From positions 5,084,001-5,148,000 of the forward strand of contig NZ_CP157276.1 of assembly GCF_040024445.1 (NCBI RefSeq): a DNA stretch of 64,000 nucleotides, written 5' to 3'. This stretch comes from Prescottella soli (GTDB taxonomy: Bacteria; Actinomycetota; Actinomycetes; Mycobacteriales; Mycobacteriaceae). A program made the translations under genes and the position numbers. The notes beneath the pieces were generated by a model. That model saw only the letters and a list, made by a program, of their open reading frames with translations. It had not been told where the DNA came from and did no database searches. Shown here one piece after another: positions 22,832 to 40,599 of the stretch (the first letter of the stretch is position 1; each line of letters begins with the position of its first letter).

Positions 22832-24802
22832 TCAGGACGGGCCGTGCGCGGGCTGGAACGTGCCGGTGTGGCCGGACTCCTCGGCGCGGATGACGTGCAC
22901 GACGGCGTTGATGAGCGCCAGGTGGGTGAACGCCTGCGGGAAGTTACCCAGGTGCCGGCCCGTCTTGGGGTCGATCTCCTCGCCGTAGAGCTTGAGGGGG
23001 CTCGCGAACGAGAGGAGCCGCTCGCACAGGTTTCTGGCCCGTTTCACCTCGCCGATCTCGACGAGCGCCGACACCAGCCAGAACGAGCAGATCGTGAACG
23101 TGCCCTCCTTGCCGGACAGGCCGTCGTCGGTGGACTCGACGCGGTAGCGGAGCACGAGTCCGTCCTCCGTGAGCTCGTCGGCGATCGCCAGGACGGTCGC
23201 CCGGATCCGGGGGTCGTCGGCGGGCAGGAACCGCAGCAGCGGTGCCAGCAGCAGCGACGCGTCCAGGGACGGGTGTCCGTAGCGCTGCGTGAACACCCCG
23301 CGCTCGTCGACGCCGTGCTCGAGGATGTCGGCCTTGACGTCGTCGGCGATCTCGCCCCACTGCGCCGCGTAGGCCTTCTCGCCGTGCAGCAGGGCGAGCT
23401 TGACACCGCGGTCGAGCGCCACCCAGCACATGATCTTCGACGACGTGAAGTGCTGCGGTTCGCCGCGCACCTCCCAGATCCCGCGGTCGGGCTCGCGCCA
23501 GTGCTCGACGACCTCCTCGATCTGCCGTTGGAGCAGCGGCCACAACGTCTCGGGGACCTGGTCGCGGGACCGGACGTGCAGGTACACCGAGTCGAGCAGG
23601 GTGCCCCAGATGTCGTGCTGGTTCTGGTTGTAGGCGCCGTTGCCGATCCGCACGGGCAGGGCCCCGTCGTAGCCCTTCAGGTGGCTGAGTTCCTCTTCGA
23701 CGAGGGTGTGCTCGCCGCCGACGCCGTACATCACCTGCAGTGGGGCCGGATCGCCGTTGTCCGATTGGGCGGAGTCGAAGATGAACGAGAAGAAGTCGTT
23801 CGCCTCACGATCGAGCCCGAGGGTGTAGAGGCCCCAGAGCGCGAAGGTCGAGTCCCGCACCCACGCGTACCGATAGTCCCAGTTGCGTTCCCCGCCGGGG
23901 GTTTCCGGCAGCGACGTGGTGGGTGCGGCGAGCAGGGCGCCGGTCGGTGCGTAGGTCAGACCCTTGAGGGTCAGTGCGCTGCTCTGCAGGTGGCTCCGCC
24001 ACGGATGGTCGGGGAAACGCCCGATCGTCACCCATTGCCGCCAGCACTCGGTGGTCTGCCACATCTTGTCGGCGGCTTCGGCGAATGTCTGCGGGGCCTG
24101 CAGTTCCGACCACGACAGCGCGACGAACGCGTTGTCGCCCTCCACCATGCGAGTGCGTGCCCGAGCCTCACGGCCTTCGAGCCCCAGACGCAGGTTCGAC
24201 GTCAATCGGAGCGTCGGATGCTCGCCGTCGCCCTCGGAGAGGCTCGTCGCGCTGGCCTCCTCGTAGACCTTGCCTGTGTACTCCCAGTGAGCCGGGGCGC
24301 GGTGGTAGTCGAACGCCGGCTCGCAACTCATCTCCAACTCGACGGTGCCGCTCACGCACTTGACGGTCCGCAACAGGATGTGTTCGGCGTCCCAGTCCGA
24401 CGGTGTGCGGCGGCGCCTTCGGGAGCGCTGTTCGTTCGCGTGCCACGGGCCCATCACGAGTGCGTCGCGCACGATCAACCACCCGGTCTGGGTCTGCCAC
24501 GTGGTCTCGAGGATCAGCCCACCCGGCAGGTAGCGACGCGCGGACGGCACGTTCTGGCCGTACGGTCCGATCCGGAAGTGTCCGGCGCTCCGGTCGAGTA
24601 TCGCGCCGAACACACTGGGGGAGTCGGGGCGCGGGACGCACATCCACTCGACGGCGCCATTGCGTGCGACCAGACAGTTCGTCTCGCAATCCGAGAGGAA
24701 TGCATAGTCGTCGATCGGCGGGTAGACGCTGCGACGCTTCGGTGCCACCTCGTCGGAATCTCCCGCCGGAGTCGCGACGGGCTGCTCGGTCGTGGTCGTC
24801 AT
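22832..24802 (-). CDS. GH15 trehalase
   Basis: 656 aa from the ATG at 24802; an open frame continues upstream to 25108 but overlaps the divergent small membrane genes and lacks homology. Glycoside hydrolase family 15: N-terminal super-beta-sandwich (about 1-260, beginning PPIDDYAFLSDCETNCLVARNG) and an (alpha/alpha)6 barrel with WDYRYAWVRDSTFALWGLY, the general-acid Glu region, and GTFTICSFWLVSALVEIG. The same gene lies beside lepA and subI in mycobacteria, where the enzyme is a phosphate-dependent trehalase that recycles trehalose, linked to mycolate transport. Glucoamylase is the alternative. Confidence 0.87.
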   Translation of the reverse strand: MTTTTEQPVATPAGDSDEVAPKRRSVYPPIDDYAFLSDCETNCLVARNGAVEWMCVPRPDSPSVFGAILDRSAGHFRIGPYGQNVPSARRYLPGGLILETTWQTQTGWLIVRDALVMGPWHANEQRSRRRRRTPSDWDAEHILLRTVKCVSGTVELEMSCEPAFDYHRAPAHWEYTGKVYEEASATSLSEGDGEHPTLRLTSNLRLGLEGREARARTRMVEGDNAFVALSWSELQAPQTFAEAADKMWQTTECWRQWVTIGRFPDHPWRSHLQSSALTLKGLTYAPTGALLAAPTTSLPETPGGERNWDYRYAWVRDSTFALWGLYTLGLDREANDFFSFIFDSAQSDNGDPAPLQVMYGVGGEHTLVEEELSHLKGYDGALPVRIGNGAYNQNQHDIWGTLLDSVYLHVRSRDQVPETLWPLLQRQIEEVVEHWREPDRGIWEVRGEPQHFTSSKIMCWVALDRGVKLALLHGEKAYAAQWGEIADDVKADILEHGVDERGVFTQRYGHPSLDASLLLAPLLRFLPADDPRIRATVLAIADELTEDGLVLRYRVESTDDGLSGKEGTFTICSFWLVSALVEIGEVKRARNLCERLLSFASPLKLYGEEIDPKTGRHLGNFPQAFTHLALINAVVHVIRAEESGHTGTFQPAHGPS

Positions 24803-24904
24803 CACCTCATCATCGACCCGAGCGTTGCTCACCGTCCACAGTTCGCGAACCTGTGACGGTCCGCCCTGTTCGGCGGCGGTCGTGCCAGCGGCTAGGGTGG
24901 TCGG

Positions 24905-25129
24905 GTGGATCAACTGGCGAGCTGGTGGGACGGCACCGAACTGTGGGTGGCCGGCCTGCCGTTCATCCCGCAGGTCGTCCTGGTGCTCGCCGTGATGATC
25001 CCGTGCTGTTTCGGTATCGCCTGGTTGCTCGACCGCGCCCTGTCCACAGTGTTCGCGCTGCTGGGGCGTGCCGAGGTCGTCGATTCCGGCGGGCAGACGG
25101 ACGGGCAAACGAAGGTGGAGGGTTCCTAG
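24905..25129 (+). CDS. Small conserved membrane protein
   Basis: 74 aa from a GTG at 24905. One strongly hydrophobic helix (about residues 24-44, VVLVLAVMIPCCFGIAWLL) preceded by an aromatic amphipathic segment (SWWDGTELWVAGLPF) and followed by a polar tail rich in Gly/Gln. It is divergent from trehalase and directly upstream of a 25-codon membrane microprotein, with ATG overlapping just after its stop. A short membrane ORF at the equivalent trehalase-subI position exists in mycobacteria, from memory. Function unknown. Confidence 0.6.
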   Translation: MDQLASWWDGTELWVAGLPFIPQVVLVLAVMIPCCFGIAWLLDRALSTVFALLGRAEVVDSGGQTDGQTKVEGS

Positions 25130-25207
25130 ATGCCACGCTCACGCGTGACCATGGCGCTGATTGCGCTGATCGTCCTGGTCATCATCGCCTGGTATTTCAC
25201 CCGCTGA
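25130..25207 (+). CDS. 25-residue single-helix membrane microprotein
   Basis: An ORF of 25 codons starting ATG one base after the preceding TAG, with GGAGG (25117-25121) eight bases upstream inside the previous gene. Product: basic start MPRSRVT, one uninterrupted membrane helix (MALIALIVLVIIAWYF) and end TR. The positive residues at the N-terminus predict an N-in orientation. Translational coupling with the 74-aa protein suggests a small two-subunit membrane unit. No homologue is known to me; its size is below usual gene-calling cut-offs. Confidence 0.6.
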   Translation: MPRSRVTMALIALIVLVIIAWYFTR

Positions 25208-25249
25208 CCCGCGCGGATCGGACTTCCCGATAATCTTCCGATCCTCTGC

Positions 25250-25262
25250 TAACATCTGCCGC
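25250..25262 (+). promoter_or_regulatory. -10 box of leaderless cysteine leader 1
   Basis: TAACAT at 25250-25255 with seven bases (CTGCCGC) before the leader GTG at 25263. The identical seven-base spacer is found in leader 2, where the box is TAAAGT (26710-26715). This places the RNA 5' end at the leader start codon. Confidence 0.65.
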
Positions 25263-25352
25263 GTGTCTCCAGTCACCGCACCCCGGATCCGCCATGAATT
25301 GGCGTTGATCGCTGTCGGTGGTCTGGCAGTTGCCGATATTCACTGTTGCTGA
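25263..25352 (+). CDS. Cysteine leader peptide 1 (upstream of subI1)
   Basis: 29 codons, GTG start, ending ADIHCC-stop with codons TGT TGC TGA. No ribosome site; the -10 box is seven bases upstream, so it should be translated as a leaderless mRNA. Residues RHELALIAVG in the middle are encoded by a 31-base run identical to leader 2. In mycobacteria, leaderless cysteine-rich leader ORFs act as cysteine-responsive attenuators: slow decoding of the Cys codons changes the downstream fold and opens translation of the structural genes. This leader sits 217 bases before the subI1 start. Confidence 0.85.
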   Translation: MSPVTAPRIRHELALIAVGGLAVADIHCC

Positions 25353-25569
25353 ATCGCATCTCGGCGTTCGTTCTCTCCTGAGTCCCGGTATCCGATTACC
25401 GTCGTCTCGTCGACCCATGTCGACAGCGGGCGTGCTCTGCGCACGTTGCCTTCGAACGCCGCTTCACCCCTCGGTGCTCCCCTCGAGTTCCGAATGCTGA
25501 GCCCGGCATCTGCCGGGTCGATTCCGTATGTGATCTGCACTTGCCAGACCTGTAGGAAGGTAATCCGAC
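25353..25569 (+). promoter_or_regulatory. Attenuator region of subI1
   Basis: Untranslated part between leader 1 and subI1. It holds a CCCGGCA/TGCCGGG hairpin at 25502-25517, conserved in position in the second copy as ACCCG/CGGGT (26959-26975) with changed loop and compensating bases. A CCTTC at 25449-25453 is complementary to GAAGG in the subI1 ribosome site AGGAAGG (25554-25560). Both copies also keep TGCACTTGCCAG just before the ribosome site. The mechanism is inferred. Confidence 0.5.
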
Positions 25570-26601
25570 ATGAAGCATCGTTCCCGTTTGTTCCTCACCA
25601 CCCTCGCCACGATCGGCGCAGTCGCGCTGACCGCGTGCAGCGGAGGCTCGAGTGACGTCGCGGGGGGTAGCGGCACCAGCGCCGACGGCAGCGGCGGCAC
25701 CATCAACCTCTTCGCCTACGCGGTCCCGAAGCCGGGGTTCGACAAGGTGACTGCGGCGTTCGCCCAGACCGACGAAGGCAAGGGCGTCACCTTCAAACCG
25801 TCGTACGGTGCGTCGGGTGACCAGTCGCGCAAGGTCAAGGACGGCGCGCAGGCCGACTTCGTGAATTTCTCCGTCGAGCCCGACATCACCCGACTGGTCG
25901 ACGCCGGACTCGTCGACAAGGACTGGAACAGCGGCGCCTACAACGGGATTCCGTTCGGCTCGGTCGTGACGATCGTCGTCCGCAAGGGCAACCCGAAGAA
26001 CATCAAGGACTGGGACGACCTGCTCCAGCCCGGCATCGAGGTCGTCACGCCGAACCCGTTCAGCTCCGGCTCGGCCAAGTGGAACCTGCTGGCGCCGTAT
26101 GCCGCCAAGAGCGAGGGCGGCAAGAATCCGCAGGCCGGCCTGGACTACCTGGGCAAGTTGGTCGGTGAACACGTCAAGGTGCAGCCCAAGTCGGGTCGGG
26201 AGGCGACCGAGACGTTCCTGCAGGGCACCGGCGACGTGCTCTTGAGCTACGAGAACGAGGCGCTGTTCACCGAGCGCAACGGCGATCCCGTCGAGCACGT
26301 CACCCCGCCGGTCACCTTCAAGATCGAGAACCCGGCCGCGGTCATCTCGAACAGCCGGAACATCGCCCAGGCCACCGCCTTCCGCGACTACCTGTACACC
26401 ACCGATGCGCAGCGTCTGTGGGCCGAGGCCGGCTTCCGGCCGGTCGACCCGGAGGTCGCCAAGGAGTTCGCCGCGGACTTCCCGCAGCCGCAGAAGTTGT
26501 GGACCATCGCCGACCTCGGCGGCTGGAAGACCGTCGACGCCGACTTGTTCAAGCAGGGCAGCGGCAGCATCGCCGTCATCTACGACAACGCGACCAAGTA
26601 G
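25570..26601 (+). CDS. subI: Sulfate-binding lipoprotein, copy 1
   Basis: 343 aa. Lipoprotein signal MKHRSRLFLTTLATIG then LTAC with the acylated Cys at residue 23, so it is anchored outside the membrane. The body is a periplasmic-binding-protein class II sulfate/thiosulfate receptor: NLFAYAVPKPGFDKV, GASGDQSRKVKDGAQADF, WNSGAYNGIPFGSVV, and the PNPFSSGSAKWNLLAPYAAK sulfate-binding loop. It delivers sulfate to CysT/CysW/CysA. It is followed at once by its own terminator, so it is made separately from the transporter. It is nearly identical to copy 2 over most of the mature domain and differs mainly in the Gly/Ser linker after Cys23. Confidence 0.95.
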   Translation: MKHRSRLFLTTLATIGAVALTACSGGSSDVAGGSGTSADGSGGTINLFAYAVPKPGFDKVTAAFAQTDEGKGVTFKPSYGASGDQSRKVKDGAQADFVNFSVEPDITRLVDAGLVDKDWNSGAYNGIPFGSVVTIVVRKGNPKNIKDWDDLLQPGIEVVTPNPFSSGSAKWNLLAPYAAKSEGGKNPQAGLDYLGKLVGEHVKVQPKSGREATETFLQGTGDVLLSYENEALFTERNGDPVEHVTPPVTFKIENPAAVISNSRNIAQATAFRDYLYTTDAQRLWAEAGFRPVDPEVAKEFAADFPQPQKLWTIADLGGWKTVDADLFKQGSGSIAVIYDNATK

Positions 26602-26612
26602 CCCGACGCCCA

Positions 26613-26650
26613 CGGCGATCCGCAAGGCGGCGATGCCTTGCGGATCGCCG
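26613..26650 (+). terminator. Terminator between subI1 and the second sulfate unit
   Basis: A perfect 16-bp stem, CGGCGATCCGCAAGGC at 26613-26628 and its complement at 26635-26650, with a 6-base loop, 11 bases after the subI1 stop. It isolates subI1 from the leader 2 transcription unit. Confidence 0.88.
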
Positions 26651-26722
26651 GTGTAGGGCCGTCGCAGTCGTTCTCGATCTTGCGATTCGGGCGTCGACCG
26701 GGCCTCTGCTAAAGTCTGCCGC

Positions 26723-26812
26723 GTGTCGTTAGTCGCCGCCCACCAGGTCCGCCATGAATTGGCGTTGATCGCTGTCGGCCGACTTGCAGTCGCAGACATT
26801 CACTGTTGTTGA
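26723..26812 (+). CDS. Cysteine leader peptide 2 (upstream of subI2-cysTWA)
   Basis: 29 codons, GTG start, ending ADIHCC-stop with codons TGT TGT TGA. The -10 box TAAAGT (26710-26715) lies seven bases upstream and there is no ribosome site, indicating leaderless translation. It matches leader 1 in length, ending and the RHELALIAVG core, with changes concentrated in the first ten codons. Substitutions elsewhere are conservative or silent, which argues for selection on the peptide. It controls the whole subI2-cysT-cysW-cysA operon by the same cysteine-sensing logic. Confidence 0.85.
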   Translation: MSLVAAHQVRHELALIAVGRLAVADIHCC

Positions 26813-27028
26813 TTCGAATCTCGGCGTTCGCCCTCGCATAGCCGGGGCATCCGACTGTCCCTCGGTTCCGACGGGACGTGTCGGTCGCGGTCGCGCACCG
26901 CGAGCATTCTTCGAACGCCGTATCGCCCCGGAACTCCCCGCGAGTTCCGATACGCGAGACCCGATGTTGCCGGGTTGATTCCGTATGTGATCCTCTGCAC
27001 TTGCCAGCCCGGTAGGAAGGTAATCCGT
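26813..27028 (+). promoter_or_regulatory. Attenuator region of subI2
   Basis: 216 bases between leader 2 and subI2, colinear with the copy 1 region. An ACCCG/CGGGT hairpin (26959-26975) corresponds to the hairpin of copy 1. AGGAAGG at 27014-27020 is the subI2 ribosome site. A readable frame from 26975 runs into subI2 and contains two Cys codons (CTC), but it lacks a ribosome site. Confidence 0.5.
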
Positions 27029-28060
27029 ATGAAGCACCGCTCTCGATTGTTTCTGACCGCACTCGCCACGATCGGCGCAGTGGCGCTGACCGCGTGCAGC
27101 GGCGGCTCGAGCGATGTCGTGGGCGGCACCGACGCGGGTGCGGGTGGCGGAGCCGGCGCCGTCAACATGTTCGCGTTCGGTGTTCCCAAGCCCGGCTACG
27201 ACAAGGTGACCGCGGGGTTCGCCCGGACCGACGAAGGCAAGGGCGTCACCTTCAACCCGTCGTACGGTGCGTCGGGTGACCAGTCGCGCAAGGTCAAGGA
27301 CGGCGCGCAGGCCGACTTCGTCAGCTTCTCGGTCGAGCCCGAGATCACCCGGCTGGTCGACGCGGGTCTAGTGGACGAGGCGTGGAACAGCGGCGCCTAC
27401 AACGGGATTCCGTTCGGCTCGGTGGTGACGCTCGTGGTCCGGAAGGACAACCCGAAGAACATCGCGGACTGGGACGACCTGCTTCAGCCCGGCATCGAGG
27501 TCGTCACGCCGAACCCGTTCAGCTCCGGCTCGGCCAAGTGGAATCTGCTGGCGCCGTACGCCGCCAAGAGCGAGGGCGGCAAGAACCCGCAGGCCGGCCT
27601 GGACTATCTGGACAAGTTGGTGGGCGAGCATGTGAAGGTGCAGCCCAAGTCGGGTCGGGAGGCGACCGAGATGTTCCTGCAGGGCACCGGTGACGTGCTG
27701 CTGAGCTACGAGAACGAGGCGCTGTTCACCGAACGCAAGGGTGACCCGGTGGAGCACGTGACGCCGCCGGTGACCTTCAAGATCGAGAATCCGGTCGCGG
27801 TGGTCTCGAACGGCCGGAACGTCGCGCAGGCCAGCGCCTTCCGCGACTACCTGTACACCACCGATGCGCAGCGTCTGTGGGCCGAGGCCGGCTTCCGGCC
27901 GGTCGATCCCGCGGTCGCGGCCGAGTTCGCCGCGGACTTCCCGCAGCCACACAAGCTGTGGACCGTCGCGGACCTCGGCGGCTGGACCGTCGTCGACCAG
28001 GAACTGTTCACACAGGGCAGCGGCCACATCGCCGCGATCTACGACAACGCGACCAAGTAA
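27029..28060 (+). CDS. subI: Sulfate-binding lipoprotein, copy 2
   Basis: 343 aa from the ATG at 27029, preceded by AGGAAGG; an in-frame ATG at 26975 would add residues before the signal peptide and is rejected. Signal sequence and lipobox LTAC (Cys23) as in copy 1; the linker after it is Gly/Ala-rich instead of Ser/Gly-rich. It shares GASGDQSRKVKDGAQADF and PNPFSSGSAKWNLLAPYAAK with copy 1, the sulfate-binding core. The start codons of the two copies are 1459 bases apart, giving a tandem duplication that includes the leader. It overlaps cysT by one base and so supplies the receptor for the transporter. Confidence 0.95.
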   Translation: MKHRSRLFLTALATIGAVALTACSGGSSDVVGGTDAGAGGGAGAVNMFAFGVPKPGYDKVTAGFARTDEGKGVTFNPSYGASGDQSRKVKDGAQADFVSFSVEPEITRLVDAGLVDEAWNSGAYNGIPFGSVVTLVVRKDNPKNIADWDDLLQPGIEVVTPNPFSSGSAKWNLLAPYAAKSEGGKNPQAGLDYLDKLVGEHVKVQPKSGREATEMFLQGTGDVLLSYENEALFTERKGDPVEHVTPPVTFKIENPVAVVSNGRNVAQASAFRDYLYTTDAQRLWAEAGFRPVDPAVAAEFAADFPQPHKLWTVADLGGWTVVDQELFTQGSGHIAAIYDNATK

Positions 28061-28893
28061 TGGCCACGACACTGACTCGCCGGAAGAACTGGCTCGCTGT
28101 CACCGGAACCGTCGGCCCGCTGGGCATCGGCATCGCGGCGCTGTGGCTCAGCGTCATCGTGTTGCTGCCGCTCGCGGCGCTCACCGTCACCTCCCTCGAG
28201 GACGGCATCAGCGGCTTCTGGGACGCGGTCACCGCGCCCGGTGCGCTCGCCGCGCTGCGGGTGACCATCACGGTGTCGGTGATCGTCGCGCTCATCAACG
28301 TCGTGATGGGCACGATGATCGCCTGGGTGCTGGTGCGGGACGAGTTCCCGGGCAAGCGAATCGTCAACGCGCTCATCGACCTTCCGTTCGCGTTGCCGAC
28401 GATCGTCGCCAGCATCGTGATGCTGTCGCTGTACGGTCCACAGAGCCCGATCGACGTGCACCTCAACGCCACCCAGCCGGGTCTGATCGTGGCGCTCGCG
28501 TTCGTCACACTGCCCTTCGTCGTCCGGTCGGTGCAGCCGGTGCTGATGGAGGCCGACCGGGAGGTCGAGGAGGCGGCGGCGTCGCTGGGCGCGAGTAACT
28601 GGACGATCTTCCGCCGGGTGGTGCTGCCGACGCTGGCCCCGGCGGTCATCAGCGGCGCCGGACTGGCGTTCGCCCGCGCGATCGGCGAATACGGCTCGGT
28701 GGTCCTGATCGGCGGAAACATTCCCCGTGAGACCCAGGTGGCGTCGCAGTACATTCAGCAGCAGATCGAGATCGACCGACCGGTCAGCGCCGCGGCGGTG
28801 TCGGTGACGCTGTTGGTGATCGCGTTCGTGACGCTGTTCGTGCTGCGCATATTCGCGGCCCGCAACCAGCGTCGAGAGGAGCACGCGCAGTGA
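28060..28893 (+). CDS. cysT: Sulfate ABC transporter permease CysT
   Basis: 277 aa from an ATG sharing a base with the subI2 stop (TAATG). Six membrane helices of the MetI-like permease type: first helix LWLSVIVLLPLAAL, and the EAA loop EVEEAAASLGASNWTIFRRVVLPTL which contacts the CysA ATPase. DLPFALPTIVASIVML is typical of CysT. It forms the membrane channel with CysW for sulfate/thiosulfate import. Translational coupling with subI2 upstream and cysW downstream (4-base overlap). Confidence 0.95.
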   Translation: MATTLTRRKNWLAVTGTVGPLGIGIAALWLSVIVLLPLAALTVTSLEDGISGFWDAVTAPGALAALRVTITVSVIVALINVVMGTMIAWVLVRDEFPGKRIVNALIDLPFALPTIVASIVMLSLYGPQSPIDVHLNATQPGLIVALAFVTLPFVVRSVQPVLMEADREVEEAAASLGASNWTIFRRVVLPTLAPAVISGAGLAFARAIGEYGSVVLIGGNIPRETQVASQYIQQQIEIDRPVSAAAVSVTLLVIAFVTLFVLRIFAARNQRREEHAQ

Positions 28894-29696
28894 AGGTCTC
28901 CCCGTGGGCGCGGATCAGCATCCGCACCGTCGTCCTCGCCTACCTCTTCGTGCTGCTGATCGTCCCGATCGGCGTGATCCTGTTCCGCACCTTCGAGCAC
29001 GGGTTCGTCGCGTTCTACCAGGCGATCAGCACCCCGGCAGCGATATCGGCGCTCAACCTGTCGCTGCTGATCGTCGCGATCGTGGTGCCGATCAACGTCG
29101 TGTTCGGCATCGTCACCGCGCTGGCACTGGTGCGGGGACGCTTCCCCGGGCGGGGGCTGTTGCAGTCGGTCGTGGACCTTCCGTTCGCGGTGTCGCCCAT
29201 CGTCGTCGGCGTCTCGCTGATCCTGCTGTGGGGTGCCAACGGCTGGTTCGGCGGTGTCGAGTCGCTCGGCTTCAAGGTGATCTTCGGGCTGCCCGGCATG
29301 GTGATCGCGACGATCTTCGTGACACTGCCGTTCGTGGTGCGCGAGGTCGAGCCGGTGCTGCACGAGATCGGCGACGAGCAGGAGCAGGCCGCGGCGACCC
29401 TGGGCGCCTCCAAGTGGCAGACGTTCTCGCGGATCACGCTGCCCGCCATCCGCTGGGGGTTGACGTACGGCATCGTCCTCACCGTCGCCCGCGCGCTCGG
29501 TGAGTTCGGTGCGGTCATCATGGTCTCGTCCGGCATTCCCGGCCAGTCGCAGACCCTGACGTTGCTCGTGCACTCCCGATACATCGACGACCACAACACC
29601 TTCGGGGCCTACGCCGCGGCGACACTGCTGATGTCGATCGCGCTCGTGACCCTGCTGCTGATGACTCTGCTCGACCGCAAGAGGAGCACGACATGA
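28890..29696 (+). CDS. cysW: Sulfate ABC transporter permease CysW
   Basis: 268 aa from a GTG overlapping the cysT stop (GTGA). Six helices; [20 protein letters not shown] and the EAA loop [26 protein letters not shown] identify CysW. The C-terminal [11 protein letters not shown] ends the last helix. It pairs with CysT to form the inner-membrane channel. An ATGA overlap leads into cysA. Confidence 0.95.
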
Positions 29697-30640
29697 TTAC
29701 CGTGACCGGGGCGCGCAAGAACTACGGCGATTTCGCCGCACTCGACGACGTCACCCTCGAGATTCCGTCGGGGTCGCTGACGGCACTGCTGGGGCCCAGC
29801 GGCTCGGGCAAGTCGACGCTGTTGCGGTCCATCGCCGGCCTCGAGCAGCCCGACTCGGGAACCATCACGATCGCCGGCGAGGACGTCACCGGTGTGCCGC
29901 CGCAGAAGCGCGACATCGGGTTCGTCTTCCAGCACTACGCGGCGTTCAAGCACATGACGGTGCGTGACAACGTCGCGTTCGGGCTCAAGATCCGCAAGCG
30001 CCCCAAGGCCGAGATCGCCAAGAAAGTCGACGACCTCCTCGAGATCGTGGGACTCGACGGCTTCCAGCACCGCTACCCGGCCCAGCTGTCGGGCGGTCAG
30101 CGCCAGCGCATGGCCCTCGCGCGGGCCCTCGCGGTGGATCCGCAGGTGTTGCTGCTCGACGAGCCCTTCGGCGCCCTCGACGCGAAGGTGCGTGACGACC
30201 TGCGGGCGTGGTTGCGCCGGCTGCACGACGAGGTCCACGTCACGACGGTCCTGGTCACCCACGACCAGGAGGAGGCGCTCGACGTCGCCGACCGGATCGC
30301 GGTGCTCAACAAGGGGCGGATCGAGCAGGTCGGTACTCCGCAGGAGTTGTACGACACCCCCGCCAACGACTTCGTGATGTCGTTCCTCGGCCCGGTCGCC
30401 CGTCTCAACGGGCAGCTCGTGCGACCGCACGACCTGCGGTTGGACCGCAACCAGCTCCCGCAGTCGTTCGCGGCCACCGTGTCCCGGGTCGTCCACCTCG
30501 GATTCGAGGTGCGCGTCGAGTTGCAGCCGAAGACCGGCGCGCAGGAACTCTCCGCGCAGATCACGCGTAGCGACGCCGACGCGCTGGGGCTGCGCGAGGG
30601 CGAGACGGTGTACGTCCGTCCGAGCGACGTCACCGGATAG
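29693..30640 (+). CDS. cysA: Sulfate ABC transporter ATP-binding protein
   Basis: 315 aa from an ATG overlapping the cysW stop. Walker [13 protein letters not shown]-loop [14 protein letters not shown], signature [16 protein letters not shown], Walker [19 protein letters not shown] and H-loop [14 protein letters not shown] are all intact. A short TOBE-like C-terminal region (about 245-315) follows, somewhat shorter than the usual 350-residue CysA. It powers sulfate and thiosulfate uptake. Last gene of the leader 2 operon; it converges on a serine hydrolase gene. Confidence 0.96.
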
Positions 30641-38893: not shown

Positions 38894-40599
38894 CGCAAAT
38901 CCCCCTCGTCTGCTCGAACTGCCCACTGTGCAAAACGTTCACCCTCATTGCGGTGCTTCACGAAGTTCCGCACCACTCGGTCGATGTAGTCGCCGAGCTC
39001 GTCGCTGGTCACCTTGTGCTGACGCAGCTTCCGGCCGAACGCGCTGTCGAGACCGAGGCTGCCGCCCAGGTGCACCTGGAAGCCCTCGACCTGGTTGCCC
39101 TCGCCGTCGTCCACCAACTGGCCCTTGAAGCCGATGTCCGCGATCTGGGACCGGCCGCACGAGTTGGGGCAGCCGTTGATGTTGATGGTGATCGGGACGT
39201 CGAGCTGCGCGTTGATGTCCGCGAGCCGCTCCTCGAGCTCCGGTGCGAGCACCTGCGAGCGCTTGCGGGTCTCCACGAACGACAGCTTGCAGAACTCGAT
39301 ACCGCTGCAGGCCAGCAGGTTCCGGCGCCAGTGCGACGGCCGTGCGTGCAGGCCCAGCGGCTGCAGTTCGGCGATCAGCTCCTCGACCTTCTCGTCGGGC
39401 ACGTCGAGCACGATCAGCTTCTGGTACGGCGTGAAGCGGATGCGGTCGGAGCCGACCGCCTCGGCCGCATCCGCGACCTTGGACAGGATGGTGCCGGACA
39501 CGCGACCCGCGATGGGGGAGAACCCGATTGCGTTCAGGCCGTTGCGCAGCTTCTGGACACCGATGTGGTCGATCGGGCGCTCGGGCTTCTCCGGCGCGGG
39601 ACCGTCGATGAGGGGCCGCTTCAGGTACTCCGTCTCGAGGACTTCCCGGAACTTTTCGATGCCCCAGTCCTTGATCAGGAACTTCAGCCGCGCCTTCGCG
39701 CGCAGGCGGCGGTAGCCGTAGTCGCGGAAGATCGAGACCACGGCCTCCCACACGTCCGGGACCTCGTCGAGCGGCACCCACACGCCGACGCGCTGCGCCA
39801 GCATCGGATTCGTCGACAGGCCGCCGCCGACCCACAGGTCCAGGCCCGGGCCGTGCTCGGGATGGTTCACGCCGACGAACGCGACGTCGTTGATCTCGTG
39901 CACCACATCCTGCTGACCCGAGATCGCGGTCTTGAACTTGCGGGGCAGGTTCGAGTACTCCGGATCGCCGATGTAGCGGCGGACGATCTCGTCGATCGCC
40001 GGCGTCGGGTCGAGGACCTCGTCGAACGACTCCCCGGCCAGCGGGGAACCGAGCACCACACGCGGGCAGTCGCCGCACGCCTCGGTGGTCTTGAGGCCGA
40101 CGGCCTCGAGTCGCTGCCAGATCTCGGGAACGTTCTCGATCTCGATCCAGTGGTACTGGACGTTCTCGCGGTCCGAGAGGTCGGCGGTGTCACGACCGAA
40201 CTCGGTCGACAGTTCGCCGACCGTGCGCAACTGCTCGGCGGTGAGGGCGCCCGCGTCGCAGCGCACCCGCATCATGAAGTACTTGGCCTCGAGCAGGTCG
40301 ATGTTCTCGTCGCCGGTGTACGTGCCGTCGTAGCCCTCTTCACGCTGCGTGTACAGGCCCCACCAGCGCATACGACCGCGCAGGTCGGCCTTGTCGATGC
40401 TGTCGAAGCCCTGCTTCGAGTAGATGTTCTCGATGCGCGCGCGGACGTTGAGTGGGTTGTCGTCCTTCTTGATCTGCTCGTTCGCGTTGAGCGGCTCGCG
40501 GTAGCCGAGGGCCCACTGGCCCTCGGAGACACGCTTCTTGGGCCGCGCGGTGCGCGCCGGCGGGCTCACAGCAGATTCGGCGTCGGTGGTCGACGTCAT
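38890..40599 (-). CDS. nirA: Ferredoxin-sulfite reductase
   Basis: 569 aa. Two nitrite/sulfite reductase repeats: RDTADLSDRENVQYHWIEIENVP in the N-half, the cluster/siroheme Cys at TEACGDCPRVVLGS and a second pair at NGCPNSCGRSQIADIG. The mycobacterial NirA reduces sulfite to sulfide with ferredoxin and siroheme, feeding cysteine synthesis. Here the position as first gene of nirA-cysH-cysD-cysN-cbiX supports sulfite rather than nitrite. The ATG at 40599 has AGGAG (rc of 40606-40610), which abuts a hairpin arm. The leader peptide at 40852 precedes it by 163 bases. Confidence 0.95.
   Translation of the reverse strand: MTSTTDAESAVSPPARTARPKKRVSEGQWALGYREPLNANEQIKKDDNPLNVRARIENIYSKQGFDSIDKADLRGRMRWWGLYTQREEGYDGTYTGDENIDLLEAKYFMMRVRCDAGALTAEQLRTVGELSTEFGRDTADLSDRENVQYHWIEIENVPEIWQRLEAVGLKTTEACGDCPRVVLGSPLAGESFDEVLDPTPAIDEIVRRYIGDPEYSNLPRKFKTAISGQQDVVHEINDVAFVGVNHPEHGPGLDLWVGGGLSTNPMLAQRVGVWVPLDEVPDVWEAVVSIFRDYGYRRLRAKARLKFLIKDWGIEKFREVLETEYLKRPLIDGPAPEKPERPIDHIGVQKLRNGLNAIGFSPIAGRVSGTILSKVADAAEAVGSDRIRFTPYQKLIVLDVPDEKVEELIAELQPLGLHARPSHWRRNLLACSGIEFCKLSFVETRKRSQVLAPELEERLADINAQLDVPITININGCPNSCGRSQIADIGFKGQLVDDGEGNQVEGFQVHLGGSLGLDSAFGRKLRQHKVTSDELGDYIDRVVRNFVKHRNEGERFAQWAVRADEGDLR

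What the first reader, a model, noticed from the sequence alone, without database searches (positions are those of the whole stretch)
25263..27028. Twin leaderless Cys-Cys leader peptides, one per duplicated sulfate receptor
Two 29-codon ORFs, each with a -10 box exactly seven bases from the GTG and ending ADIHCC-stop, precede subI1 and subI2-cysTWA. The coding core RHELALIAVG is identical while the first ten codons have drifted, and each has a separate transcription unit (a terminator sits between). Cysteine leaders of mycobacteria are known; a duplicated pair that separately tunes receptor-only and receptor-plus-channel transcripts is not something I know to be described. It would let the cell raise receptor levels independently of the channel.
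Basis: partly seen in the sequence, partly recalled or inferred. Interest (0 to 1): 0.9.

Follow-up and report, generated by a model that had tools for sequence, protein, structure and literature searches.

The report
Twin cysteine leaders before sulfate receptors
Two copies of a known type of tiny cysteine-sensing gene each sit in front of one of two duplicated sulfate-receptor genes; the sensor type is already known in related bacteria, but the conserved pair, and signs that its peptide sequence itself matters, give a clean natural test of how such sensors work.

Summary
The two ORFs are real and exactly where stated (25263-25352, 26723-26812), each 7 nt after a -10 box, ending Cys-Cys-stop; no such ORF arose in 100 shuffled windows. 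Both pass the curated cut-off of NCBIfam NF042937, "Ms4533A family Cys-rich leader peptide" (59 and 47.2 bits; cut-off 31), so the leaders belong to a known kind: leaderless cysteine attenuators. The tandem pair is genuine: 11 of 14 genomes of the genus (Prescottella) hold two leader-subI units, 3 hold one; outside the genus 1 of 287 genomes sampled holds two, on different contigs. In 160 distinct leaders the first terminal Cys codon is TGT in 160 (subI genes: 11 TGT, 86 TGC), and residues 13-19 and 23-25 are held at peptide level. Leader 1 has one terminal Cys in 6 of 11 twin genomes; leader 2 has two or more in 11 of 11. Folding gave no support for release of the ribosome-binding site; a C-rich, G-poor spacer (146 of 157) fits Rho-dependent attenuation better. 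Separate tuning of receptor and channel is plausible but unshown.

The parts
25247..25262 (+). extended -10 (TGC TAACAT) of promoter 1 plus 7-nt gap to the start codon
   Evidence: Sequence. Over 160 distinct leaders, -10 end to start is 7 nt in 122, 6 in 36, 8 in 2 (the scan required 4-9).
25263..25352 (+). leader 1, MSPVTAPRIRHELALIAVGGLAVADIHCC, Cys codons TGT TGC
   Evidence: ORF; NCBIfam NF042937 leader_Ms4533A 59 bits, cut-off 31
25290..25304 (+). small possible hairpin inside leader 1, CGCCA-TGAAT-TGGCG
   Evidence: Sequence; codon 10 is CGC in 146 of 146 Arg cases; GCCA in 160 of 160 and TGGC in 159 of 160 leaders by the codon counts
25362..25370 (+). 5' arm of the post-leader helix, unit 1 (CGGCGTTCG)
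   Evidence: Covariation across 22 of 25 UTRs of the genus: 181 of 198 cells paired, double changes at 3 of 9 pairs
25453..25461 (+). 3' arm of the post-leader helix, unit 1 (CGAACGCCG)
25555..25560 (+). Shine-Dalgarno GGAAGG of subI1
   Evidence: Sequence; GGAAGG in 23 of the 25 aligned UTRs of the genus
25570..26601 (+). subI1 (343 aa), sulfate-binding lipoprotein
   Evidence: TIGR00971 175.9 bits, cut-off 155.5; closest solved structure 6DDN SubI, 453 bits
26613..26650 (+). 16-bp perfect hairpin after subI1; probable but unproven terminator, no T-run
   Evidence: by eye a strong hairpin follows subI1 in 9 of 11 twin genomes, with different stem sequences in the two lineages
26707..26722 (+). 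extended -10 (TGC TAAAGT) of promoter 2 plus 7-nt gap
26723..26812 (+). leader 2, MSLVAAHQVRHELALIAVGRLAVADIHCC, Cys codons TGT TGT
   Evidence: ORF; NCBIfam NF042937 47.2 bits
26822..26830 (+). 5' arm of the post-leader helix, unit 2
26912..26920 (+). 3' arm of the post-leader helix, unit 2
27015..27020 (+). Shine-Dalgarno GGAAGG of subI2
27029..28060 (+). subI2 (343 aa), 87% identical to SubI1
   Evidence: TIGR00971 163.5 bits; identity
28060..28893 (+). cysT, sulfate permease
   Evidence: TIGR02139 271.9 bits, cut-off 246.1
28890..29696 (+). cysW, sulfate permease
   Evidence: TIGR02140 347.4 bits, cut-off 329.1
29693..30640 (+). cysA, sulfate ABC ATPase
   Evidence: TIGR00968 416.5 bits, cut-off 342.75

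Best explanation
Each ORF is a leaderless cysteine attenuator of the Ms4533A type. RNA polymerase starts at the GTG; ribosomes load on the 5' end and translate 27 codons to an invariant UGU that has only one or two more codons before the stop in 145 of 160 family members. With enough Cys-tRNA the ribosome finishes and leaves, and the roughly 200-nt untranslated C-rich spacer shuts the downstream gene off. When Cys-tRNA is short the ribosome waits at the UGU and the downstream gene stays on. The leader-subI unit was duplicated in tandem in an ancestor of the genus, each copy keeping its own promoter, leader and spacer, so subI1 alone and subI2-cysTWA answer cysteine through two separate sensors. 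Shown here: the ORFs, family membership, retention of both copies, codon and peptide constraint, a covarying helix within the genus, the C-rich spacer. Inferred: leaderless translation, stalling, the off-switch (Rho-dependent termination favoured over masking of the ribosome-binding site) and termination between the units.
For: Both leaders pass the NF042937 cut-off. 11 of 14 genomes of the genus have both units, and the core of both leader sets is under amino-acid-level selection: pN/pS in codons 10-28 is 0.078 for leader 1 (10 of 11 genomes; one longer leader left out) and 0.139 for leader 2 (11), against 0.67 and 0.65 in codons 2-9; for 60 leaders drawn from the 160 it is 0.28 against 0.80. 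First terminal Cys codon TGT in 160 of 160 leaders, against 11 TGT and 86 TGC in 96 subI genes. Cys at codon 28 in 151 of 154 leaders found without fixing the register. Spacer C>G in 146 of 157, mean skew +0.131, upstream control 76 of 157, -0.004; 83 of 92 against 47 of 92 after clustering similar spacers. Papers citing Canestrari 2020 state that such leaders regulate cysteine genes in M. smegmatis.
Against: No transcript, footprint or reporter data. Masking the leader by a stalled ribosome does not change Shine-Dalgarno accessibility beyond shuffled spacers (mean -0.11 against 0.03 kcal/mol, 25 UTRs, 6 shuffles each). The 5' arm of the helix is genus-bound: 22 of 24 rows of the genus, 4 of 136 others. 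The leader-to-SD pairing seen in unit 1 of this window is not general in the alignments. 69 of 160 leaders have a single Cys in the terminal tract, followed by Arg, and 50 have only one Cys in all, unlike published polycysteine tracts. The C>G test has no matched set of ordinary long 5' UTRs as control. The 160 leaders were gathered by a family model and a scan that required 6 of 13 core residues, so their conservation is partly selected.
Confidence: 0.75

Rival explanations
1. Redundant duplication: the pair is a tandem copy kept alike by gene conversion that merely raises SubI dose; the two leaders respond identically and nothing is tuned separately.
For: In this strain both leaders end TGY TGY with the same 7-nt promoter spacing. 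subI1 and subI2 are 96-97% identical in three 100-nt blocks where subI1 is only 82-87% identical to its counterpart in two other species, which suggests gene conversion.
Against: Both units persist in 11 of 14 genomes; leader 1 has one terminal Cys in 6 of 11 while leader 2 has two or more in 11 of 11; spacers differ between units and species; in 8 of 11 a 74-aa ORF lies between the units.
Confidence: 0.4
2. The nascent leader peptide, not only the Cys codon, is the sensor: an arrest peptide whose core in the ribosome tunnel makes the ribosome pause at UGU28 or the stop codon according to cysteine supply.
For: H11, L13-G19 and V23-D25 are kept in 155-160 of 160 leaders with free third positions at several codons; Cys at codon 28 in 151 of 154 though codons 2-9 drift. 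Leaders with a single Cys are common (50 of 160). The stall site lies next to the stop codon.
Against: Conservation is partly selected by the scan. It could serve a product acting in trans, and codons 10-15 are also constrained as RNA. The published M. smegmatis model needs only the Cys codons (recalled; the paper is not held).
Confidence: 0.2
3. Shine-Dalgarno masking: leader RNA pairs with the region of the subI ribosome-binding site and a stalled ribosome frees it, as reported for mycobacterial cysteine genes.
For: Pairing 25320-25337 with 25533-25550 in unit 1 (83% complementary); translation attenuation is stated for M. smegmatis cysteine genes in PMC13236596.
Against: No average effect in 25 UTRs of the genus; the 58 of 88 UTRs that a first run printed before its time limit show no consistent effect; the pairing is not conserved in the alignments.
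Confidence: 0.3
4. A conserved DNA or RNA element that is not translated.
For: Codons 10-14 are strongly constrained at nucleotide level and can form a hairpin.
Against: pN/pS 0.08-0.14 in the core against 0.65-0.67 in codons 2-9; open frame kept in 160 distinct sequences, although the scan itself required an open frame.
Confidence: 0.04

Closest known systems
Ms4533A family Cys-rich leader peptide (NCBIfam NF042937)
   Same: Both window leaders pass the curated cut-off (profile positions 1-30 and 7-30 of 30) and precede subI.
   Different: Two tandem copies, one per receptor paralogue; leader 1 reduced to one terminal Cys in 6 of 11 twin genomes.
Polycysteine leaderless ORFs of Mycobacterium smegmatis (Canestrari et al. 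2020, PMC8764745; not held; known from citing passages)
   Same: Leaderless short ORF with terminal Cys codons in front of sulfur genes.
   Different: Contiguous Cys codons there; here one or two in most members, a conserved peptide core, and no general SD-masking effect found.
Cysteine leader peptides of PMC1262725 (2005; passages read)
   Same: ORFs with Cys codons near the stop before cys operons; no conserved terminator hairpin; Rho-dependent termination proposed.
   Different: Its authors called the Rho idea weak because polyY motifs were not conserved; the composition of 157 spacers here gives it more support. No twin arrangement in the passages seen.
Ms4527A family Cys-rich leader (NF042936)
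   Same: Another leader of this class lies in the same window at 40852-40763 (-).
   Different: Different peptide family (RRHVDL core) with a CSCCC run, before a nitrite/sulfite-reductase-like gene.
E. coli tnaC arrest peptide and Rho-dependent attenuation (recalled; the tna operon is cited as analogue in PMC1262725)
   Same: Short leader, stall near its stop codon, Rho-type off state proposed.
   Different: No sequence relation claimed; the signal here would be cysteine or Cys-tRNA; arrest not shown.

Membership tests
Ms4533A family Cys-rich leader peptide (NF042937) | Score over the curated cut-off of 31 bits | tested here: met
   59 bits (leader 1), 47.2 bits (leader 2)
Ms4533A family Cys-rich leader peptide (NF042937) | Directly upstream of a sulfate-binding protein gene (my reading of the family's usual place) | tested here: met
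   subI1 and subI2, TIGR00971 175.9 and 163.5 bits, cut-off 155.5
Leaderless cysteine attenuator (Canestrari type) | mRNA starts at the start codon | not testable with these tools
   -10 box 7 nt before GTG in both agrees with it; no 5'-end data
Leaderless cysteine attenuator (Canestrari type) | Contiguous Cys codons near the end of the ORF | tested here: met
   Two Cys codons before the stop in both window leaders; but 69 of 160 family members have one there
Leaderless cysteine attenuator (Canestrari type) | Leader RNA structure that masks the downstream ribosome-binding site and is opened by a stalled ribosome | tested here: inconclusive
   No average effect in 25 UTRs; one possible pairing in unit 1
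Leaderless cysteine attenuator (Canestrari type) | Downstream gene responds to cysteine | not testable with these tools
   Needs expression data
Rho-dependent attenuator | C-rich, G-poor untranslated stretch after the leader | tested here: met
   146 of 157 spacers C>G, upstream control 76 of 157; window spacers +0.191 and +0.129, reached by 1.25% and 4.9% of 150-nt windows; no matched control of ordinary long UTRs
Rho-dependent attenuator | Termination lost without Rho activity | not testable with these tools
   Needs experiment
Intrinsic terminator between the units | Stem-loop followed by a T-run | tested here: not met
   Strong 16-bp stem but no T-run; it may still terminate, untested

The most novel reading that the evidence does not exclude
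The twin leaders are two copies of a cysteine-sensing nascent peptide: a fixed 27-residue chain with a nearly invariant core (H-x-L-A-L-I-A-V-G ... V-A-D) that holds the ribosome at an invariant UGU next to the stop, protecting a Rho-loading spacer; the duplicated sensors have been retuned by changing the number of Cys codons (one for the receptor-only unit in 6 of 11 species, two or more for receptor plus channel), so that receptor and channel supply switch on at different cysteine levels.
Probability: 0.15. Interest if true: 0.75.

Novelty: new variant of a known kind. Interest (0 to 1): 0.45.

Why it matters
Cysteine attenuators of actinobacteria have been explained by Cys codons (citing passages). 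This family shows features that a codon-only model does not predict: a peptide core conserved across genera, an invariant TGT as first terminal Cys codon where TGC is the normal choice, and a nearly fixed distance from start to Cys. Fifty of 160 members have a single Cys. The duplicated pair is a natural side-by-side experiment: same genome, same gene family, two leaders that diverge, with one or two Cys codons depending on species. It makes the questions 'codon or peptide?' and 'Rho or ribosome-binding site?' directly testable, and would be an unusual case of a transporter whose receptor and channel are set by separate sensors.

Tried and rejected
Rfam scan of 24900-28100 up to E=1: no match. 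Shine-Dalgarno release model: a first run stopped at its time limit after 58 of 88 UTRs, no consistent effect; a run on the 25 Prescottella UTRs with shuffled spacers gave a null result. Leader-to-SD duplex energies have no null in this GC-rich DNA and are not used. Post-leader helix: a best-complement search was not convincing for any single sequence (19 to 259 of 500 shuffles reach it, which ended in a script error before the last sequences). I kept the helix only after the covariation count, in which partners were sought by a GAAC/GGAC/GAGC anchor and, in 12 of the 22 rows with more than one candidate, picked by eye; 3 of 25 rows (short-spacer leader-1 units L137, L145, L147) lack the 5' arm. 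Of 2000 shuffles 15 reach the number of paired cells, 5 the Watson-Crick cells, 9 the double-change cells and 38 the double-change positions; the shuffles do not keep relatedness. One duplication or two: the protein tree (subI2 group 57/95, subI1 group not one clade) and half-gene trees do not decide. I favour one duplication of a unit that included the 74-aa/25-aa pair with loss of one copy of that pair in each lineage, because Arg20 stands in 9 of 11 leader 2 and 0 of 11 leader 1. The sigma-70 scan found no promoter pair in 24800-28100. The first gene-order run used an out-of-frame translation of the divergent gene as probe; the right frame finds the gene in 25 of 25 records, and Pfam names it Glyco_hydro_15.

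Rows dropped: 8 named loci (L057-L061, L071, L074, L075) were left out (print), 26, 29 and 40 as the same genomes as fetched handles, judged from equal contig lengths. Of 111 subI upstream regions 106 gave a leader. Leader 1 of L147 (one codon longer) was left out. Three of 160 leaders had too little flank. The scan fixes the register and asks for 6 of 13 core residues; frees the register but demands a core motif and the -10. In one search eight loci gave no leader (L082, L123, L126, L127, L129, L133, L187, L188); I did not resolve each. The family scan scored at most 25 candidates a genome, so 165 of 301 is a lower bound, and so is the count of genomes with two.
Full report
What is there. The window carries, on the + strand, promoter 1 - leader 1 - subI1 - hairpin - promoter 2 - leader 2 - subI2 - cysT - cysW - cysA. 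Both leaders are 29-codon GTG ORFs, 7 nt after a TANNNT box that is itself preceded by TGC. They are the only ORFs of that description in 64 kb on either strand, and 100 shuffles gave none. SubI1 and SubI2 are 343 aa each, 87% identical; the nearest solved structure by sequence is SubI, PDB 6DDN (453 bits).

What it is. Both leaders match NCBIfam NF042937 (Ms4533A family Cys-rich leader peptide) above its curated cut-off. The class is known: cysteine leaders before mycobacterial cys operons were predicted in 2005 (PMC1262725, passages read); cysteine-rich leaderless ORFs were reported with ribosome profiling in 2015 (PMC4633059, passages read); and the mechanism was studied in M. smegmatis by Canestrari et al. 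2020, which I could not open and know from passages of papers that cite it (PMC9094748, PMC13236596, PMC9031893). So the leaders themselves are not new.

How old is the pair. The genus is Prescottella by the titles of the closest records. 14 of 14 genomes of the genus match the leader family: 11 have two matches, 3 have one, and the same 11 have two subI genes in tandem. In a sample of 301 genomes of the family (the 14 of the genus included) 165 match; outside the genus 151 of 287 match and one of them has two matches, on different contigs (at most 25 candidates scored a genome). In that one, G038, a subI relative follows each leader; one leader ends CR and the other CCR, and one of its contigs has the length of a Skermania contig. 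Gene order: in the three single-copy genomes and in all 11 outgroup records checked, a 74-aa ORF (with a 25-aa ORF detected in some) lies between a divergent glycoside hydrolase family 15 gene and subI; 8 of 11 twin genomes have that ORF between subI1 and subI2, and the window's lineage (3 genomes) has it before subI1. A tandem duplication of the whole unit with loss of a different copy of the small-ORF pair in each lineage explains both orders; blocks of high identity between subI1 and subI2 suggest gene conversion on top. The trees do not exclude two duplications.

What selection says. In the scan with free register one leader has its first Cys one codon earlier as TGC (L190; 153 TGT of 154). 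V23, D25 and C28 are invariant and A24 is 159 of 160; H11, L13, A14, L15, I16, A17, V18 and G19 are kept in 155-159 of 160 (the scan asked for 6 of 13 core residues and a Cys at 27-30). Codons 17, 22 and 24 use all four Ala codons, so the peptide and not only the RNA is held; codons 10-15 are also constrained at nucleotide level. pN/pS in codons 10-28 is 0.078 for leader 1 (n=10) and 0.139 for leader 2 (n=11), against 0.67 and 0.65 in codons 2-9; over 60 leaders drawn from all 160 it is 0.28 against 0.80, with synonymous sites near saturation. The distance is nearly fixed: core Leu at codon 13 in 153 of 154, first Cys at codon 28 in 151 of 154. 69 of 160 leaders have Arg after the first terminal Cys; 50 of these have no other Cys anywhere.

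Divergence of the two leaders. In the 11 twin genomes leader 1 ends in two Cys in 5 and in one Cys plus Arg in 6; leader 2 has two or more in all 11. These species are not independent, so this is a pattern, not a test. In the window's own strain both have two, TGT TGC and TGT TGT.

How the signal is read out. The published model is that a stalled ribosome opens RNA that hides the downstream ribosome-binding site (stated for such systems in PMC13236596, first part of the Discussion read). I compared the cost of opening the SD with the whole leader RNA and with everything up to the stalled ribosome removed, in 25 UTRs, against spacers shuffled by dinucleotides (6 each): mean difference -0.11 against 0.03 kcal/mol, no effect. 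In this window the difference is -1.7 for unit 1, against the model, and +0.5 for unit 2. A pairing of leader 1 with the region before the subI1 SD exists but is not general in the alignments. A likely RNA element of the genus is a 9-bp helix whose first arm starts 10 nt after the leader stop: 22 of 25 UTRs have it, 181 of 198 cells pair, and three of nine pairs show double changes (4 cells; 9 of 2000 shuffles reach that; partners partly picked by eye). Its 5' arm motif is found in 22 of 24 rows of the genus and in 4 of 136 others. What does persist across genera is composition: the 120 nt after the leader are C>G in 146 of 157 (mean skew +0.131), the upstream control in 76 of 157 (-0.004); in 92 clustered representatives 83 and 47. 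The C excess starts at the leader stop and fades about 240 nt on. The spacer of the third leader in the window is similar (+0.193). This is the kind of composition that Rho loading would need (recalled) and supports the suggestion of PMC1262725, which its authors called weak. I therefore favour Rho-dependent attenuation as the off state, as inference.

Verdict on the claim. Two separately sensed units are likely; independent tuning is possible and not shown. The hairpin between the units (z -6.36) has counterparts after subI1 in 9 of 11 twin genomes by eye, with one stem sequence in the window's lineage and another in the rest, which supports some role such as termination or 3'-end protection, but it lacks a T-run and the simple scan does not call it. 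Searches of the held papers for a twin arrangement found none; most papers of subscription journals are not held.

Noticed in passing
window 40852-40763 (-): A third cysteine leader, MTDRGVRLVARRHVDLKRVCSCCCLPCGV (NF042936 leader_Ms4527A, 50.8 bits, cut-off 45), before a nitrite/sulfite-reductase-like gene starting at 40599 (-) (best model below its own cut-off). Three cysteine leaders lie within 16 kb.
   Followed up: partly
window 24905-25126 and 25130-25204 (+): A pair of small ORFs (74 and 25 aa) tied to the sulfate locus: the 74-aa ORF lies beside it in all 25 records checked; no NCBIfam match, and in Pfam only DUF347 for the 25-aa ORF, below its cut-off. Its position relative to the two subI units differs between lineages.
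   Followed up: partly
own genome G000:C1:2363964-2364011 (-) and 1985525-1985581 (+): Two further putative leader peptides (NF042934 cis_reg_atten over cut-off); the second reads ...RRRAVDLCRLGGCCCPCC. Downstream genes not examined.
   Followed up: no
L237 and L238 (genome G038, another genus): A second case of two leader-subI copies in one genome, on different contigs, one leader with one terminal Cys and one with two.
   Followed up: partly
window 25290-25304 and 26750-26764: A small possible hairpin (CGCCA-TGAAT-TGGCG) inside the leader ORF; GCCA is kept in 160 of 160 and TGGC in 159 of 160 leaders by the codon counts. Role unknown.
   Followed up: partly
window 25570-26601 and 27029-28060: Mosaic identity between subI1 and subI2 (68% to 97% in 100-nt blocks) points to segmental gene conversion.
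   Followed up: partly
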